A stretch of 64,000 nucleotides of DNA, taken from Gimesia benthica. Its GTDB lineage: Bacteria; Planctomycetota; Planctomycetia; Planctomycetales; Planctomycetaceae. Where the stretch lies: positions 5,426,501 to 5,490,500 of the forward strand of contig NZ_CP043930.1 in NCBI RefSeq assembly GCF_009720525.1, in the 5' to 3' direction. Numbering within the stretch: position 1 is the first letter of the stretch; each line of letters begins with the position of its first letter. This document shows, in pieces, positions 50,881 through 57,745 of this stretch. The translations under genes and the position numbers were made by a program. The notes beneath the pieces are model-generated. The model had not been told where the DNA came from, searched no databases, and was given only the letters and a program-made list of their open reading frames with translations.

Positions 50881-50976
50881 ACATCTCGCTTGAAAAATGT
50901 ATGGGTGTATACATAATGGGTTTGTGGATATGTTGCGAGTCGGATTATTGGAACTGCGAGTCAGGGGAATTCTCTC

Positions 50977-52107
50977 ATGCGTTTTTTGATGATGAATGTA
51001 ATTATTCTGTGCTTTTCATCAGTTTCCGTTCTCATGGCGGAAGAACTGCCTTCAATAGACTATCCGGCTCTGGGCTTCAGGACTGTGAAGGTTCTGGATT
51101 ACAAGAAAGCACTGCGGGAACAGGGAGAGGAGATTCCCCGATTTCCACCTCGTTCAGGGAACGCGCTCATTGTAAAAATGGATCAATATCAAACCCGAAT
51201 TAATAGTGCACTGACTGTTGTAGAAGATACGCGCGCTTCGCGATCAGAACTTAAGGACCGGGATTTAATTGTAGTGATCAATGGGAAATTACTACGTTCA
51301 CCTGATGATGGGGACAAGCTTCTAGAGAAGATTACACATAAGGATAAACTGGAATTAAATGTGATTCGTCGTAACAGGAGCAAGTGGGAACGGATCAACA
51401 TTACTTTAGAACCTATGGGCGATCTGGAATTTTCCAAGTCGAAGGTGAAGAATGTGAAAGCTTACGATGATGATTTTGCCTTAGCTCGATTTGGAGTTCA
51501 CCGCGACGCGCGACCCCGGTTCAGTGATGGTCATTTTCAGCTGTATATCAAACAGAAAAGCCAGGAATTATCGAAACTGTATTTGCAGTTGTCACTGTTC
51601 CTGCCAGATGCACCACCACAGAAGGATACGACAAAAATCCAAGGTTTTATCATCAAAACCGATGGTGCAGAGTATCGAGTTGCGATAGAAGATGAAGAGA
51701 AAAATAATCCGCAGGCGGCAGAAGCGAGAAGAAATAAGTCAATCGCAAATTTTTCTGAATTCTACAATCGTTCGACGAATCGGACGCGCAAGATGCTGGA
51801 TGAACTGGGCGAAAAAATCAGCAATTTTGAAAAAGCTCCTGAAGAAACTCTGATCGAGTTTGAACGTCGTGGCATTGCCCGATCACAGGTCGGTTTTGCC
51901 AGAATGCTTGAAGGTTGGGAATTATATGACAGTCGTCTGAAGAGAGATCAGAGAAAAATGATTGCGGATATCATCTCATCGAAAAAAGTGAGTTTTTATC
52001 ATGAATCTGTTCCCGACAAACCATTTGAAGTCACTCCGGCGCAGAAGGCGCAAATGAAAGCTGTGCTGACAGTCTTTAAGGATGAGGAAGGCAATGTGGG
52101 GGAGTAG
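50977..52107 (+). CDS. Secreted PDZ-like protein, first of a tandem pair
   Basis: This protein has 376 residues. A signal peptide lies at about 1-21 (MNVIILCFSSVSVLMAEE). The N-terminal block has YPALGFRTVKVLDYKKALREQ. A PDZ-like region (about 70-145) shows RSELKDRDLIVVINGKLLRS and LELNVIRRNRSKWERINITL. A middle region follows. The C-terminal block has WELYDSRL, IADIISSKKVSFYHESVPDK and ALTVFKDEEG. The next gene repeats all these blocks in the same order, so the two are paralogs. The function is unknown. AGGGGAA stands before the ATG. Confidence 0.8.
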   Translation: MRFLMMNVIILCFSSVSVLMAEELPSIDYPALGFRTVKVLDYKKALREQGEEIPRFPPRSGNALIVKMDQYQTRINSALTVVEDTRASRSELKDRDLIVVINGKLLRSPDDGDKLLEKITHKDKLELNVIRRNRSKWERINITLEPMGDLEFSKSKVKNVKAYDDDFALARFGVHRDARPRFSDGHFQLYIKQKSQELSKLYLQLSLFLPDAPPQKDTTKIQGFIIKTDGAEYRVAIEDEEKNNPQAAEARRNKSIANFSEFYNRSTNRTRKMLDELGEKISNFEKAPEETLIEFERRGIARSQVGFARMLEGWELYDSRLKRDQRKMIADIISSKKVSFYHESVPDKPFEVTPAQKAQMKAVLTVFKDEEGNVGE

Positions 52108-52171
52108 TCACACGTTTGATTATTTAGAGGAGTATTCAATTATAGTTGTGTATGCGATCGAGGCCAGATTG

Positions 52172-53557
52172 ATGAGAGTGTTGTGCGTTTTAGCTGTCTT
52201 GTGTTCATCCGCGTTTCAGGTTCAAGCACAACCGCCTGTTAAACAGTACGAGATGGGGTTTGAGACAGTTGAAGTCTTTGAATATATCAAGTCGCTTCGT
52301 GAAGCGAATCAACCGGTTCCGATTTTTCCGTCACGCACCAGTAATGCTTTGATTGTGAAGACCGTTGCGGACAAATCACGAGCCTCGATGGCAGGGCTTC
52401 AGAAAAATGATCTGATTCACATTGTCAACGGAAGTCACCTGCGTGCACCCGGCGCGGGAGATAAGAAACTCAGTCGGATCACCAGTCAGGATGAGTTGAA
52501 ACTGGGAGTGATCCGACGGGAGGAAAATCGATGGAATCGAATCTCCATTGTGCTACCTGCGATCTCAGATGAGATGGCACTCAGACTGAAATTAAGGAAA
52601 ACTCCAGGTCTCGATTCCGAGCTGCTGCCTGTGGTCAAAGTCAGCCATCGGGAATCTCCGGCTACGATATTTGCTCCGGATAATTTCCAGCTCTACTTTA
52701 CGGAAACGAATTCACGTCCCGCTCAACTCCATCTGAGAATGGCTCAATTACTTCCAGGTAAAACTGTCGGCGGAACATTCATCATCGCGACCGAACAAGG
52801 TCAAACTGCTTTCGTGCCCGAGGGGGGCTTTGACAGAGATCACAAACCGAGTATTTTTCGACGATCGAATAGTCCAGAGTGGGAGCCGATTCAGGTAGAA
52901 CTGCAACTGTTGCTGACTGAAGAAGGTCAGCGGAAAATCAAAGAGGAATTCCGGGTTGCAGAAGAAGCGTATGAGCGCGAATTCAAAGATTTTAAATTCG
53001 ATGAAAAGCGGACCGACAAAGCATACCAGGAACGGAATAAAGAGCGATTAAAACAGATTGCCGCGATGGAACGGATCAATGCCGAGCTGATGCGAGTCGA
53101 ACAAAACCATCAGCGTCTCCTGCGTCGTCAGGAACAGTTGGCGAATCCAGCGAGTATCTCAGGCCGAAACTCGAGGCAACTGACCGAACAATCGCGAAAG
53201 GCGATTCGAGCTCTTTACACGGGGCTCACGCCAGAGCAGCAGGAGATCGTCAGAAAATCGGTTGTATCTCACAGAACTCCTGCATTTCTCAATGAAGCTG
53301 GTCTACTGCAACTGGAAGAAACGGGATTCGCTGAGTGGGAAATCAAATTGAAAAGAGCCAGTCAAGGCTGGAAATGGTATGACGCACCTGTGAATCCGCA
53401 GCAGTTGAAACTACTGCGGGATATCATTTCATCGGATAATGTGACAGTCCATCACGCGAGAGTTCCCGGGCAGAAATTTACAGTCTCTGCCGCTCAGAGG
53501 GAGCAGATGAAAATTGTATTAGACGTCTTTTTTGAGCAGGGAGGCAAGGTGCAGTAA
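52172..53557 (+). CDS. Secreted PDZ-like protein, second of a tandem pair
   Basis: This protein has 461 residues. The start ATG 52172 gives a proper signal peptide (MRVLCVLAVLCSSAFQVQAQ); the in-frame start at 52082 overlaps the upstream gene and is less likely. The blocks mirror the upstream paralog: MGFETVEVFEYIKSLREAN, PDZ-like MAGLQKNDLIHIVNGSHLRA with LKLGVIRREENRWNRISIVL, and C-terminal WKWYDAPVNPQ, RDIISSDNVTVHHARVPGQ and VLDVFFEQGG. It has an extra coiled-coil insertion of about 80 residues (KRTDKAYQERNKERLKQ and following), the main length difference. The function is unknown. Confidence 0.82.
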   Translation: MRVLCVLAVLCSSAFQVQAQPPVKQYEMGFETVEVFEYIKSLREANQPVPIFPSRTSNALIVKTVADKSRASMAGLQKNDLIHIVNGSHLRAPGAGDKKLSRITSQDELKLGVIRREENRWNRISIVLPAISDEMALRLKLRKTPGLDSELLPVVKVSHRESPATIFAPDNFQLYFTETNSRPAQLHLRMAQLLPGKTVGGTFIIATEQGQTAFVPEGGFDRDHKPSIFRRSNSPEWEPIQVELQLLLTEEGQRKIKEEFRVAEEAYEREFKDFKFDEKRTDKAYQERNKERLKQIAAMERINAELMRVEQNHQRLLRRQEQLANPASISGRNSRQLTEQSRKAIRALYTGLTPEQQEIVRKSVVSHRTPAFLNEAGLLQLEETGFAEWEIKLKRASQGWKWYDAPVNPQQLKLLRDIISSDNVTVHHARVPGQKFTVSAAQREQMKIVLDVFFEQGGKVQ

Positions 53558-53594: not shown

Positions 53595-54131
53595 TCAAGA
53601 ATGGTTGAACGCTTTCCATAGATCCGTGTGTCTGACATCGATGGCATACCAGCAGGCTCCCGAATCTGCTGCGGGGAAATCCTGCCAGGCGACAATGAAG
53701 TGAAAACTGCATCGGTTTCCTTTTTTCAGGTCAGGCAGTGTCAGCGAGATGCCTTTTTCGTCATGTCCCAGCGGGCAGAATTCATATTTCTGCTCTTCCG
53801 GCAGGCGCGCATTAAGACACTCTTCATCTTCAGTGCCGATCATAAGCTGCGTCTGAGCATTCTCCCAGGACATAGCAAACAGATGCTGGCCCCCTTCATA
53901 AGAGCAGGAGTCGTACTTATGGCCCCGCAGTCGGCACTCGAATATCAGATCTTCTGCTGGTTCGCGACAGTTAGTTTGAAGCAGAATTCCCAGGCAGTTG
54001 TCTAGCGACATCCCAGCCGGCAACCGGGGTGAGAGCGGCACCTCATCAAGCTGTACCTGTACCCCCGGTGTGACACCAAAGACGAAGAAATTGATTTCCC
54101 CCAGTGGGGTGTTGATGATGAGATTGTGCAT
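53595..54131 (-). CDS. Conserved-looking hypothetical protein, unknown
   Basis: This protein has 178 residues with no signal peptide or membrane segment. It has repeated Cys (at DNCLG, NCREP, FECRL, SCSYEG, EECLN, EFCPLG, NRCSF, GACWY), which is high for a cytosolic protein. Motifs seen include FAMSWENAQTQLMIG and YAIDVRHTDLWKAF at the end. No domain is recognised. It is convergent with the PDZ tandem pair and divergent from the AT-rich gene that follows. Confidence 0.7.
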   Translation of the reverse strand: MHNLIINTPLGEINFFVFGVTPGVQVQLDEVPLSPRLPAGMSLDNCLGILLQTNCREPAEDLIFECRLRGHKYDSCSYEGGQHLFAMSWENAQTQLMIGTEDEECLNARLPEEQKYEFCPLGHDEKGISLTLPDLKKGNRCSFHFIVAWQDFPAADSGACWYAIDVRHTDLWKAFNHS

Positions 54132-54324: not shown

Positions 54325-55002
54325 ATGCATTTTTATGAACAGCACTACGAGCGATATTGTTTGCGAGAATATATTGGAATGTGGCATCCGAATATTCCCA
54401 AAGCTGTTATTTACTGGATTTTGATTAAGCTCAATTTAAAGCGACTGAATAGAAAACCGTTTCCCGTGTTTCGCTCCGTTCGAGCTAATCAAATTGAGTT
54501 GGATCAGGTACCTGAAAAATATCGTGCTGCAATTTCTGAAGAACTGAACCTGTTATTCAGGTATGACTTTGTGGATCCCCTTCTGTCTGGTGTCATCTCT
54601 GGTTCCAGTTTAAAAGAACTAAGACAAACGGGAGTCTGTTTGCTTTCACGTCATAAGAATGGAAATTCAGCAGTATCTGTCATTATTGATTATCATGACG
54701 GTCGTGTAACACGGCGGCCTAATTTTATTTTTACATTTATTTCAGACCCTCCTGGTGATATCACAACCAGTAACGGTCGATTTATGTGTTATTCAGATCC
54801 GGGAGGTGAGAATGCATACTATCCCAAAGTTCCTTTTGAAAAACTGGTGCATATTCACAATCAGAGAATTCTGAGTTCGAACAGAGACTTTTTACCAATC
54901 AATGACAATGAAGATCTCGTGCGAATGACAGACGGTAGATTGGTGAAAAGTATCGATGAGTTAATCCGTCGTGGGATTCTGAAGTATAAATATACTGAAT
55001 AG
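54325..55002 (+). CDS. Hypothetical protein, AT-rich gene
   Basis: This protein has about 225 residues from ATG 54325; a TTG at 54271 would add 18. It contains FYEQHYERYCLREYIGMWHPNI, RKPFPVFRSVRANQ and DPPGDITTSNGRFMCYSDPGG. There is no signal peptide, membrane segment or recognised domain. Codon use is clearly richer in A and T than in neighbouring genes, a sign of possible transfer. The pentapeptide-repeat gene follows 28 bases later on the same strand. Confidence 0.6.
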   Translation: MHFYEQHYERYCLREYIGMWHPNIPKAVIYWILIKLNLKRLNRKPFPVFRSVRANQIELDQVPEKYRAAISEELNLLFRYDFVDPLLSGVISGSSLKELRQTGVCLLSRHKNGNSAVSVIIDYHDGRVTRRPNFIFTFISDPPGDITTSNGRFMCYSDPGGENAYYPKVPFEKLVHIHNQRILSSNRDFLPINDNEDLVRMTDGRLVKSIDELIRRGILKYKYTE

Positions 55003-55030
55003 TTCCTGCTCCTGTATTTAGAGAACCATC

Positions 55031-55675
55031 ATGAACGTTGACTCTCATCTGGTTCGTCTGGTGCATGACATTTTGTTTCGTGAGTGGGACCCGCTGGGTG
55101 TGAATGCAGATGAAGCCGCCTTCAGTGAGTATTCTCGGTATGATGTTGTGCTTCTCCAATTACTCAAGAGAGAGGCGGATGAACGGCGTGTTGCAGAGCA
55201 TCTGCTGCGAATTCAGGAAAACTCGCTGGGGATCAGTCCGACTGATCTTGAGAGGGATAAGGTGATCGCCTCGCGACTGCTGGCTGCGTATGAGATTGCC
55301 CAGCGTCGCATTCGACCGGCCCGCTCCGCGGAAGAGTTACTGGAACGTTATCAGACGGGAGAACGTGTTTTCAATGGCAGCCGGATTGAGACGGACGAAA
55401 GTGGAATTCTGGCGGGTTGTACTCTGAATGGTCTGGTGCTCCGCAATGCTTATGTGAAGCTCTCATTTCAGCGAGTGTCACTGCGAGGTGCCGATTTCTG
55501 GGACTCGGAGTTAAAGGGCTCTGACTTCTCTTATGCCGATTTAAGGGGGGCCAGGTTTGTCGGAAGCGTGCTGAGCGACACTTCTTTTCAAGGGGCCCGG
55601 CTCGAAGGAGCCCAGTTTAACAATGCCTGTTATCAGCTGCGCATGTTGAAAACAGGTGAGTTCCCAGACAGTTGA
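55031..55675 (+). CDS. Pentapeptide-repeat protein with an immunity-like N-terminal domain
   Basis: This protein has 214 residues. The N-terminal part (about 5-60: VHDILFREWDPLGVNADEAA, then SEYSRYD) resembles a small helical domain widespread in hypothetical proteins of the form REWDPIGV..., often seen near toxin or immunity genes; this is from memory. Residues about 115-200 are pentapeptide repeats of A(D/N)LxG type (LRGADFWDSELKGSDFSYADLRGARF, SVLSDTSFQGARLEGAQF), which fold as a right-handed quadrilateral beta helix. It probably works with the AT-rich gene 28 bases upstream. The function is unknown. Confidence 0.8.
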   Translation: MNVDSHLVRLVHDILFREWDPLGVNADEAAFSEYSRYDVVLLQLLKREADERRVAEHLLRIQENSLGISPTDLERDKVIASRLLAAYEIAQRRIRPARSAEELLERYQTGERVFNGSRIETDESGILAGCTLNGLVLRNAYVKLSFQRVSLRGADFWDSELKGSDFSYADLRGARFVGSVLSDTSFQGARLEGAQFNNACYQLRMLKTGEFPDS

Positions 55676-55697: not shown

Positions 55698-56501
55698 TCA
55701 AGCAAATTCAGCGTGAATGTATTCTCCGATTGGCTGGAATCCCAGTCTGGTGTAGGCCCGGATGGCGGGGGTGTTGTCGTTGTTGACGAACAGGGTGATT
55801 TGTCTGTCCCGGGCGAACCAGTGTCTGCAGGTGGCGCTGACGGTCTGTTTGGCGTAGCCTTTTTCCTGGTGGGCGGGATGTGTCATTACGCCGCCTACCT
55901 GGGCGTAGTGTCGGGATAGCCCGTGGACATTGGCTTTGGCGATGATCTCGCCATCCTGTTTCAGTAGCCATTCGTATTCGGGGACTATACGCGCCCGCTC
56001 GTTTTCAGGCACCTCTCTGTCGGCGGGCTGCTCATCCATGATGTTTCCCAGGCGAATGATGCCGTCTATGTCGCCTGACGTCCCCTGGACTTCTGCTCCT
56101 GTAGAACAGTCATGGAAATTCTCCTGCTCCAGCAGGTACAGGGTCTGCTCCCGAACTTTGATGGGGGTGATGCCATGCTGCTGGAGACGGTCGAGGGTCG
56201 GGAGTGCATGCCGCTGGAAGGCGACGACATATTTCACGGGCCGGTTCTGTTTCACGAACTCATCGACAAAAGCATCGATGACAGTGGTACTCTCAGCATG
56301 CAGTGTGATGTCGTTCCAGAGGCCGAAGTAGACACCCAGACCCGTCAGCACATCATTTTCGAAATAGCCCAGATAAGTGTTGAACTCGAAAGGATTGTCA
56401 GAGAATTCAAAGCTGCCGATCACGAACATGTTTTCGAGTTCGTGCTGGTAAGCATAGTCCAGAATGAGCTGTTGATCTGAGGCGGTTAGTTCACGAAGCA
56501 T
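55698..56501 (-). CDS. GNAT family N-acetyltransferase (FR47-like)
   Basis: This protein has 267 residues. The N-terminal half is an uncharacterised GNAT-like domain (QQLILDYAYQHELENMFVIGS). The C-terminal half is a full acetyltransferase domain with VGGVMTHPAHQEKGYAKQT (acetyl-CoA loop) and LFVNNDNTPAIRAYTRLGFQPIGEY. The start is ATG 56501; a longer in-frame start at 56591 overlaps the terminator of the upstream gene. The substrate is unknown. Confidence 0.85.
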   Translation of the reverse strand: MLRELTASDQQLILDYAYQHELENMFVIGSFEFSDNPFEFNTYLGYFENDVLTGLGVYFGLWNDITLHAESTTVIDAFVDEFVKQNRPVKYVVAFQRHALPTLDRLQQHGITPIKVREQTLYLLEQENFHDCSTGAEVQGTSGDIDGIIRLGNIMDEQPADREVPENERARIVPEYEWLLKQDGEIIAKANVHGLSRHYAQVGGVMTHPAHQEKGYAKQTVSATCRHWFARDRQITLFVNNDNTPAIRAYTRLGFQPIGEYIHAEFA

Positions 56502-56560
56502 GGAGTGTCGGTTCCGGAAGTTGAGCTGTTGAAAGTAGTTCGCGACTAATCGTACAAGAC

Positions 56561-56600
56561 AAAAAAACGCCCGACAAGGTTCACACCTCATCGGACGTTT
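56561..56600 (-). terminator. Rho-independent terminator after the histidine-rich PDZ gene
   Basis: On the minus strand AACGTCCGA pairs with TCGGGCGTT (one T-G wobble) around a 16-base loop, followed by T residues. It lies about 36 bases beyond the stop of the minus-strand PDZ gene and separates it from the GNAT gene. Confidence 0.75.
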
Positions 56601-56635: not shown

Positions 56636-57745
56636 CTAGAAGCTGGCTGCGGGCAGCTGAGTCATCTGAACGGTTGCCTGAAGTGGCTCGCCTTCGATGG
56701 ATTCCAGCAGTTCCATTTCCAGTACACCACCTGACTGAGCGATGACCTGGCCGAACACTTCGTTGTCGGTGATAACAACGCCGTTGCACTTCGTGATCAC
56801 CATTCCCGGTTGCATGCCGACAGCAGCGGCAGGTGAATTTTCTGCGACTGTTTCTACGCCAATCCCTTTGCCGGGCAGCATCATTCCTTTCAGACCGAGG
56901 AACCAGCGAACGTCTTCCACAACCACTCCGTTGGGAGCGACATAGTCACAAGTTGGATACACGTAGTTGCAGTACTGGTAGTTACCGGGCACGCAGTTTC
57001 GCAGTGGTGTGCAGTAGTTGTACCACCACCAGGAGAAGCGAGGACGATGGTTGTGCCAGTGATGGTTTCCGTGGTGACCATGATTGTGTCCGTTATGATG
57101 TCCATTGTGGTGACCATTATGATGTCCATTGTGGTTTCCATTATGGTGTCCGTTGCCCTGACCTGGTTTGTGAGGCATGGGCTTGGAAGGCCGTGGTTTT
57201 GGAGGACCATTGCCAACGGGAGGCCGAGGACGAGGTCGTGGTTTGGGAGCTCCCATGCCAGGTTTCGGAGGAGTGATTCCGCCATTGCCTGGTTTGCCGT
57301 TACCGATACCCGGATCGAGAGGTTTCGGGAACGGTTTGGGTTTGGTGCTTCCGATGCCTGTGAACGGTTTCCTGGTTGGGCGAGTAAAAGTGTTGCCTGG
57401 CTTCTTGTTGTTGAACTGGGAGTGAACCTGTTTCATCGAAGTGCGTGGCTGCAGGGGAGAACCCTTATGCTGCATCTTGGAAAACGAGTTCTGATTCATC
57501 CGCGTGTTTGTGACACGGTGGTTGAAGTTCTGAGGAGCCTTCATCGTTGATGTTCGGGATCGCATCCCGTTATTTCGTGATTGGAAATTCCCTCGTGACC
57601 GAGAGGAAAAGTTCGAGCGAGATGAGCTCGAGCGGGAGAAACCAGAGCGACCATTCGAGTGTCCTCTTCCCCCGGCATAAGTTTCTAATGTCATTGTTCC
57701 GGCGACCATTGCCACAATAACCAAACTGAGTGTGAAGCGTTTCAT
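56636..57745 (-). CDS. Secreted histidine-rich protein with C-terminal PDZ domain
   Basis: This protein has 369 residues. A signal peptide lies at 1-24 (ending ETYAGG). It is followed by a Ser/Arg-rich segment (30-65), a Gly/Pro/Lys-rich linker, a His/Asn/Gly repeat at about 199-233 (HNGHHNGHHNGH and similar) with 18 His in about 35 residues, and RPRFSWWWYNYCTPL. A C-terminal PDZ domain (about 285-365: GIGVETVAENSPAAAVGM, MVITKCNGVVI, GGVLEMELLES) ends the protein. The His cluster could bind Zn, Ni or Cu. Function is unknown. AGGGGAACAGGACA stands before the ATG. Confidence 0.85.
   Translation of the reverse strand: MKRFTLSLVIVAMVAGTMTLETYAGGRGHSNGRSGFSRSSSSRSNFSSRSRGNFQSRNNGMRSRTSTMKAPQNFNHRVTNTRMNQNSFSKMQHKGSPLQPRTSMKQVHSQFNNKKPGNTFTRPTRKPFTGIGSTKPKPFPKPLDPGIGNGKPGNGGITPPKPGMGAPKPRPRPRPPVGNGPPKPRPSKPMPHKPGQGNGHHNGNHNGHHNGHHNGHHNGHNHGHHGNHHWHNHRPRFSWWWYNYCTPLRNCVPGNYQYCNYVYPTCDYVAPNGVVVEDVRWFLGLKGMMLPGKGIGVETVAENSPAAAVGMQPGMVITKCNGVVITDNEVFGQVIAQSGGVLEMELLESIEGEPLQATVQMTQLPAASF
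57047..57151 (-). repeat. Short tandem repeats coding for the His-Asn-Gly tract
   Basis: The segment consists of near-identical 9- to 18-base units rich in CAC/CAT, AAT/AAC and GGA, coding for HNGH units. Such repeats can change length by slippage, so copy number may differ between strains. Confidence 0.7.

What the first reader, a model, noticed from the sequence alone, without database searches (positions are those of the whole stretch)
54325..55675. AT-rich gene coupled to a pentapeptide-repeat protein: candidate toxin/immunity or defence pair
The upstream gene has base composition unlike its neighbours and no known domain. The downstream one joins a small REWDP-type domain, reminiscent of immunity-associated proteins, to a pentapeptide-repeat beta helix, a fold used in DNA mimicry and gyrase protection. 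The 28-base spacing suggests joint expression. This is the most island-like spot in the window.
Basis: inference. Interest (0 to 1): 0.55.

Follow-up and report, generated by a model that had tools for sequence, protein, structure and literature searches.

The report
Orphan immunity-type gene beside unrelated gene
The two neighbouring genes are real, but the AT-rich one is probably not the toxin of the other: the second gene looks like a stand-alone 'antidote' to a different class of bacterial toxin, fused to a repeat-protein tail, and the two genes come and go independently in related species.

Summary
P0001 has no family above cut-off in four libraries; its relatives turned up only in this genus (8 of 17 genomes). 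Its N-terminal 'WDPIGV' domain matches no family in those libraries. Relatives sit directly behind genes ending in a DUF4258-like toxin domain in 4 of 43 loci scanned (two Rhs-like genes, a phage portal protein, a 1356-aa protein). I read P0002 as an orphan immunity-type protein fused to a short pentapeptide beta helix; no DUF4258 match was found in the genus, though that model scores these toxins below its cut-off. Gyrase protection by DNA mimicry is not supported (about 3.5 coils, net charge near zero). Toxin neutralisation is inferred, not shown.

The parts
54325..55002 (+). P0001: 225-aa protein, AT-rich (GC 0.389), relatives found only in the genus; predicted fold of helices, beta meander, helices; no known family
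55031..55675 (+). P0002: 214-aa protein, N-terminal 'REWDP' immunity-type domain plus pentapeptide-repeat beta helix
55031..55312 (+). 'REWDP' (WDPIGV) domain, about 94 aa, alignment A3; helical in a model of moderate confidence; some members elsewhere lie behind DUF4258-like toxin C-termini
55328..55627 (+). N-terminal cap and about 14 pentapeptide repeats (about 3.5 coils, counted by eye), Alr5209/HetL-like
55003..55030 (+). 28-base gap between the two genes; 28 also in G008 and G004, 75 in G014
53595..54131 (-). 178-aa gene (F2) on the other strand, found in 11 of 17 genomes of the genus; left border of the variable slot
55698..56591 (-). GNAT acetyltransferase (F3), right neighbour

Best explanation
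P0001 and P0002 are two independent accessory genes that share a variable slot. P0002 is an orphan immunity-type protein: its N-terminal 'REWDP' domain belongs to a family some of whose members are encoded immediately behind polymorphic toxins ending in a DUF4258-like (probably RNase, BECR-fold) domain. It most likely protects the cell by binding such a toxin when a competitor or phage delivers it, and the short pentapeptide beta helix behind it probably serves as a scaffold or stabilising surface. P0001 is a genus-restricted protein of unknown activity that comes and goes upstream of P0002 and is neither its toxin nor dependent on it. Shown: gene structure, linkage pattern, the scar, the domain family, toxin adjacency elsewhere. 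Inferred: that the scar is a deletion, that the adjacent genes are immunity genes, toxin binding by P0002, and the role of the beta helix.
For: Linkage in 17 genus genomes: adjacent in G000, G008, G004, G014; P0001 without P0002 in G016 (single contig) and G005 (76% complete); P0002 without an adjacent P0001 in G012, G009 (broken by a stop), G007, G006. In G007 and G006 the DNA upstream of P0002 matches G014 to about codon 13 of P0001 (14 residues in tblastn, E 0.023 and 0.006) and resumes 25-40 bases before P0002. P0002 shows purifying selection between G000 and six other genomes, with or without adjacent P0001 (dN/dS 0.126-0.199). 'REWDP' family: 12 diverse members share W19, D20, P21, E33, Y34, Y37, L58. 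A profile of seven toxin C-termini hits 4 of 43 'REWDP' loci (L091 Neorhizobium Rhs, L171 phage portal protein, L173 1356-aa protein, L184 Rhizobium, Rhs-like by eye), each on the same strand and ending about 15-35 bases before the 'REWDP' match, and nothing else in those loci at E 0.05 (the four are in the profile; leave-one-out E for them 2.5e-29 to 8.9e-6). From the toxin side, 2 of 5 places found in plasmids and phages have a 'REWDP' gene next. DUF4258 is listed among BECR-fold toxin families (PMC11980606, passages) and as a CdiA toxin class 'tRNase (?)' (PMC11630599, passage).
Against: 39 of 43 'REWDP' loci show no such toxin; several are passengers behind IS66 transposases in rhizobia, so the domain may have another role. 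3 of 5 toxin places have a different small gene next. The DUF4258 matches are below Pfam's cut-off (23.7 and 15.8 bits, cut-off 25; the Neorhizobium C-terminus has none). No DUF4258 match was found in the genus (0 of 17; 0 of 17 with one toxin domain), so P0002 has no visible partner; but since that model scores the toxins in question below its cut-off, a divergent one could be missed, and P0002 would then not be an orphan. P0002's domain is 24-44% identical to members outside its genus; specificity may differ. The leave-one-out scores used an alignment that had included the left-out sequence.
Confidence: 0.6

Rival explanations
1. P0001 is a toxin and P0002 its cognate immunity or antitoxin.
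For: Adjacency with a 28-base gap in G000, G008 and G004, and adjacency in G014; AT-rich composition in all six orthologs; P0002 carries an immunity-type domain; low 4-fold divergence of P0001 among three species suggests recent exchange. Loss of P0001 with P0002 kept (G006, G007) would also fit loss of a toxin.
Against: P0001 (71% identical) occurs in the single-contig genome G016 with no 'REWDP' match. 10 of 14 P0001-family genes are not next to a P0002 gene. Its profile does not match three of the toxin domains that 'REWDP' genes accompany (hhalign probability 0.1; the toxin alignment is short). No toxin family or confident fold match.
Confidence: 0.1
2. P0002 is a DNA-mimic pentapeptide protein that protects or inhibits gyrase, like MfpA or Qnr.
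For: Pentapeptide domain; NCBIfam lists Qnr and MfpA models among its matches.
Against: Those matches are far below the cut-offs (Qnr NF033086 23.5 bits, cut-off 240; MfpA 19.2, cut-off 360). About 14 repeats, 3.5 coils (by eye), against eight coils in MfpA (PMC8145042, passages). Net charge of residues 96-214 is -2.
Confidence: 0.04
3. P0001 and P0002 act together as a defence or signalling module unrelated to toxin neutralisation, the domain being a general adaptor.
For: Same strand and short spacing in four genomes; the variable slot; a SUKH-like gene beside P0001 in G016 (E 6.1e-4, under cut-off).
Against: Each gene persists without the other; no PADLOC match for the two proteins or the 178-aa neighbour.
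Confidence: 0.15
4. Both are neutral accessory genes; the 'REWDP' domain in P0002 no longer binds toxins.
For: No toxin of the class found in the genus; the P0002 gene of G009 has an internal stop codon.
Against: P0002 is conserved (dN/dS 0.126-0.199 between G000 and six other genomes), is held by 8 of 17 genomes, and a second genus (G105) carries the same kind of fusion, pentapeptide part judged by eye.
Confidence: 0.11

Closest known systems
Orphan immunity genes of interbacterial toxin systems (for example PMC12247911, title and start of abstract seen)
   Same: Immunity-type domain without a visible toxin partner; accessory, variable location
   Different: Fused to a pentapeptide beta helix; protection not shown; no secretion system was searched for
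DUF4258 / BECR-fold toxins and their immunity genes (PMC11980606, PMC11630599: passages)
   Same: 'REWDP' domains lie directly behind DUF4258-like toxin C-termini in Rhs-like, phage portal and one 1356-aa protein
   Different: No such toxin seen in the window locus; the domain matched no family in Pfam, NCBIfam, PADLOC or PHROGs
Alr5209 / HetL pentapeptide-repeat proteins
   Same: Cap and short right-handed beta helix; NCBIfam NF052603 residues 100-199, 42.9 bits (cut-off 125)
   Different: P0002 has an extra N-terminal domain and is under the family cut-off
PDB 1u84, a hypothetical protein (that it founds DUF1871 is recalled)
   Same: Weak profile match over positions 17-86 (E 1.3)
   Different: Not significant; no Pfam match to DUF1871

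Membership tests
Toxin-immunity pair (P0001/P0002) | The two genes are reliably linked and the toxin is not found without its immunity gene | tested here: not met
   P0001 without P0002 in 2 of 6 genomes that hold it at this spot; P0002 without adjacent P0001 in 4 of 8
Toxin-immunity pair (P0001/P0002) | Recognisable toxin domain or fold in P0001 | tested here: inconclusive
   No family; AlphaFold model pLDDT 89.8; best Foldseek E 0.44 in the PDB, best VIA Z 5.6
Toxin-immunity pair (P0001/P0002) | Toxicity and rescue | not testable with these tools
   needs expression in a laboratory strain
'REWDP' immunity-type family (A3) | Conserved WDP...EY..Y...L core | tested here: met
   (E 4.2e-30 for the window gene, which is itself in the profile)
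'REWDP' immunity-type family (A3) | Gene directly behind a DUF4258-like toxin domain | tested here: not met
   Seen in 4 of 43 loci, not in the window locus; no PF14076 match in 17 genus genomes
'REWDP' immunity-type family (A3) | Neutralises the toxin | not testable with these tools
   binding and protection assays needed
Pentapeptide repeat protein | Pfam PF00805 above its cut-off; at least eight contiguous repeats | tested here: met
   66.6 bits, cut-off 20.2; about 14 repeats by eye; definition in the abstract start of PMC8145042
Gyrase-protecting pentapeptide protein (MfpA/Qnr) | NCBIfam model above cut-off | tested here: not met
   NF033086 23.5 bits against 240; MfpA NF000349 19.2 against 360
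Gyrase-protecting pentapeptide protein (MfpA/Qnr) | Long acidic rod mimicking DNA | tested here: not met
   about 3.5 coils by eye; net charge -2 over residues 96-214; surface potential not computed
Known anti-phage defence system | PADLOC model match | tested here: not met
   0 families for P0001, P0002 and the 178-aa neighbour, the only proteins scanned

The most novel reading that the evidence does not exclude
The 'REWDP' domain is an undescribed, phylum-crossing immunity family for DUF4258-like toxins. Planctomycetes have turned it into a solitary shield by fusing it to a pentapeptide beta helix that widens or stabilises toxin recognition, while an AT-rich, horizontally exchanged gene (P0001) repeatedly docks upstream of it.
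Probability: 0.3. Interest if true: 0.55.

Novelty: new variant of a known kind. Interest (0 to 1): 0.36.

Why it matters
If right, it names the probable toxin class of a small domain that no library I scanned names and that I found in Planctomycetota, on plasmids of Alpha-, Beta- and Gammaproteobacteria and in viral contigs, and gives a testable case of an orphan immunity protein built on a pentapeptide helix. It also shows that an AT-rich, domain-less gene beside an immunity-type gene need not be its toxin: comparing 17 genomes separates the two.

Tried and rejected
Toxin reading of P0001: rejected on linkage. Gyrase mimic: rejected. Recent-island reading by composition: the six orthologs at this spot are all AT-rich (GC 0.378-0.395) at up to about 30% protein divergence, while eight paralogs have 0.42-0.55, so low GC is an old trait of this lineage of the gene. 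A recent-exchange signal exists: 4-fold sites of P0001 differ less than those of glgC and F2 in all three species pairs (p 2.4e-5 to 0.011), but against P0002 in one of three pairs only, and against the GNAT gene and the 335-aa gene in two of three (p under 0.05, 15 uncorrected tests). VIA-align rows for P0001 (Fbxo7 FP domain, CapZ; Z up to 5.6) are in the range the tool calls middling; no function was drawn from them. BFVD gave nothing at E 0.001 or less. Of five P0002 models the best has mean pLDDT 74.5 and the others about 50, so its N-terminal fold was not interpreted further. DUF1871 as the name of the domain (recalled) was not confirmed. Promoter and terminator scans were near chance. 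An 'empty-site' comparison of G012 and G009 upstream of P0002 is suggestive only. A tree of 16 genomes (G005 missing) needs seven changes for the four presence patterns, and 47 of 200 shuffles were as low, so the pattern is hardly clustered. Paper searches for DUF1871, DUF4258, polymorphic toxin with pentapeptide repeat, Gimesia with pentapeptide repeat, and Planctomycet with orphan immunity listed no paper that, from title and abstract start, describes this domain; of these I read only passages of PMC11980606 and PMC11630599.

Full report
Observation. The window carries two same-strand ORFs at 54325-55002 (P0001, 225 aa) and 55031-55675 (P0002, 214 aa), 28 bases apart. P0001 has GC 0.389 and GC3 0.341, the lowest GC of 36 ORFs that I took as genes. 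Its start at 54325 agrees with a start motif shared by 14 family members. The window lies in a single-contig genome of 8.03 Mb; a relative of P0001 in a Planctomycetaceae MAG places it in Planctomycetota. Gimesia is my guess from memory.

P0001. No Pfam, PADLOC or PHROG family, and nothing above cut-off in NCBIfam. Its relatives were found only in the genus: 8 of 17 genus genomes, and none outside it among 170 genomes of the family or 392 drawn from the phylum (only some of the first-look candidates were scored), in phages and plasmids or viral contigs. There are 14 genes in those 8 genomes: six orthologs at this spot, three of a type about 32% identical (two in the same region in G012 and G009, one on a short contig of G005), and five of a longer type with a C-terminal hydrophobic segment elsewhere in G008, G012, G009, G004 and G016. 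The AlphaFold model is confident (pLDDT 89.8, pTM 0.85): helices, then a beta meander, then helices. Structure searches gave no confident match.

P0002. Residues 100-199 are a pentapeptide-repeat module with an Alr5209/HetL-like cap. I count about 14 repeats by eye, about 3.5 coils. MfpA has eight coils and is described as a DNA mimic; Alr5209 has four (PMC8145042, passages). Residues 96-214 have net charge -2. Residues 1-95 form a separate domain that the libraries scanned do not name.

Are the two genes a unit? Among 17 genomes of the genus they are adjacent in four (G000, G008, G004, G014); P0001 stands without P0002 in two (G016, single contig; G005, 76% complete); P0002 without an adjacent P0001 in four (G012, G009, G007, G006; in G009 it is broken by a stop codon); and neither is present in seven, one of which (G010) has a separate 'REWDP' gene. 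A search with the N-terminal domain finds none in G016. In G007 and G006 the DNA upstream of P0002 aligns with that of G014 to about codon 13 of P0001 and resumes 25 to 40 bases before P0002, best read as deletion of P0001 with P0002 kept. On a 16-genome tree from a neighbouring 1115-aa protein, G006 and G007 are far apart although the scar starts at the same place, so this stretch has probably been exchanged between lineages. The four presence patterns need seven changes on that tree; 47 of 200 shuffles were as low. P0001's 4-fold sites among G000, G008 and G004 are less diverged than those of glgC and F2, which fits recent exchange, but the contrast with P0002 has p below 0.05 in only one of three pairs. 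The slot as a whole is variable: other genomes carry different genes between the glgC-like gene and the 335-aa gene. So neither gene needs the other.

What the N-terminal domain is. Searches found 'REWDP' (WDPIGV) domains, often as proteins of about 90 aa, in other planctomycetes (17 of 392 phylum genomes, five of them of this genus), on plasmids of mostly Alpha-, Beta- and Gammaproteobacteria (34 records for one query) and in five viral contigs, two of them near copies. One other genus (G105) carries a 213-aa protein with the same fusion, the pentapeptide part judged by eye. Contexts vary: passengers directly behind IS66 transposases in Rhizobium and Agrobacterium, a row of small genes before a VgrG gene, mobQ plasmids. 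In three loci the gene directly upstream ends in a shared C-terminal domain: an Rhs protein in Neorhizobium (L091), a phage portal protein (L171) and a 1356-aa protein (L173). Pfam names this domain DUF4258 for two of them, below cut-off (E 0.017 and 6e-5). Searching from the toxin side found five places; two (Neorhizobium, and a Rhizobium plasmid place not seen before, L184, Rhs-like by eye) have a 'REWDP' gene immediately downstream, and three have a different small gene. A profile of the seven toxin C-termini, scanned over 43 'REWDP' loci (15 of the 34 plasmid records, 20 planctomycete loci outside P0002's own, two of P0002's eight, five viral, and L184), hits four, each ending next to the 'REWDP' gene on the same strand, and nothing else (the four are in the profile and L184 had been fetched through the toxin). 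DUF4258 is listed as a BECR-fold toxin family of unknown activity (PMC11980606, passages) and as a CdiA toxin class marked 'tRNase (?)' (PMC11630599, passage).

Mechanism. The position directly behind a toxin C-terminus is where immunity genes usually lie (general knowledge). I therefore read the 'REWDP' domain as an immunity domain for DUF4258-like toxins, and P0002 as an orphan carrying it: no DUF4258 match was found in 17 genus genomes (the same search rang in 2 of 14 control genomes), with the caveat that the model scores the toxins in question below its cut-off. The likely action is binding of an incoming toxin, with the beta helix as scaffold. Binding and protection are inferred. Against this, 39 of 43 'REWDP' loci show no such toxin, and the IS66 passengers suggest that the domain also travels alone.

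Verdict. The pair interpretation does not, except that the second gene's domain is immunity-associated, for which there is now positional evidence from four loci with three architectures. The interest lies in the unnamed domain family and its fusion to a pentapeptide helix, not in the pair.

Noticed in passing
window 50977-53557: Two overlapping tandem genes with weak PDZ matches (under cut-off); a block at about 50900-52100 (GC 0.435 at 51001-52000) does not align in G008, G004 and G012, which each have one such gene.
   Followed up: partly
window 57100-57700: A low-complexity stretch of the 369-aa gene (weak PDZ matches) falls to about 59-71% identity in G008 and G004 while flanks are about 95% and G012 stays at 85-99%.
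   Followed up: no
L086, L087, L133, L135: A 'REWDP' gene sits as a passenger directly behind an IS66 transposase gene in Rhizobium and Agrobacterium plasmids.
   Followed up: partly
L054:9172-9603: In G016 a SUKH-1-like gene (E 6.1e-4, under cut-off) lies between the P0001 ortholog, on the other strand, and the 178-aa gene; SUKH proteins are known as immunity proteins (recalled).
   Followed up: partly
L050:10444-10833: The P0002 gene of G009 has an internal stop codon; the remaining 129-aa ORF keeps the 'REWDP' domain and loses most of the beta helix.
   Followed up: no
L147:3945-4882: A 'REWDP' gene follows two short genes that look like a nucleotidyltransferase/HEPN toxin-antitoxin pair (by eye).
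   Followed up: no
L182:1854-2111, L183:1749-1997, L185:1739-1978: Three DUF4258-like toxin genes are followed by other small proteins instead of 'REWDP', at least two of which look alike by eye: possibly an alternative immunity family.
   Followed up: no
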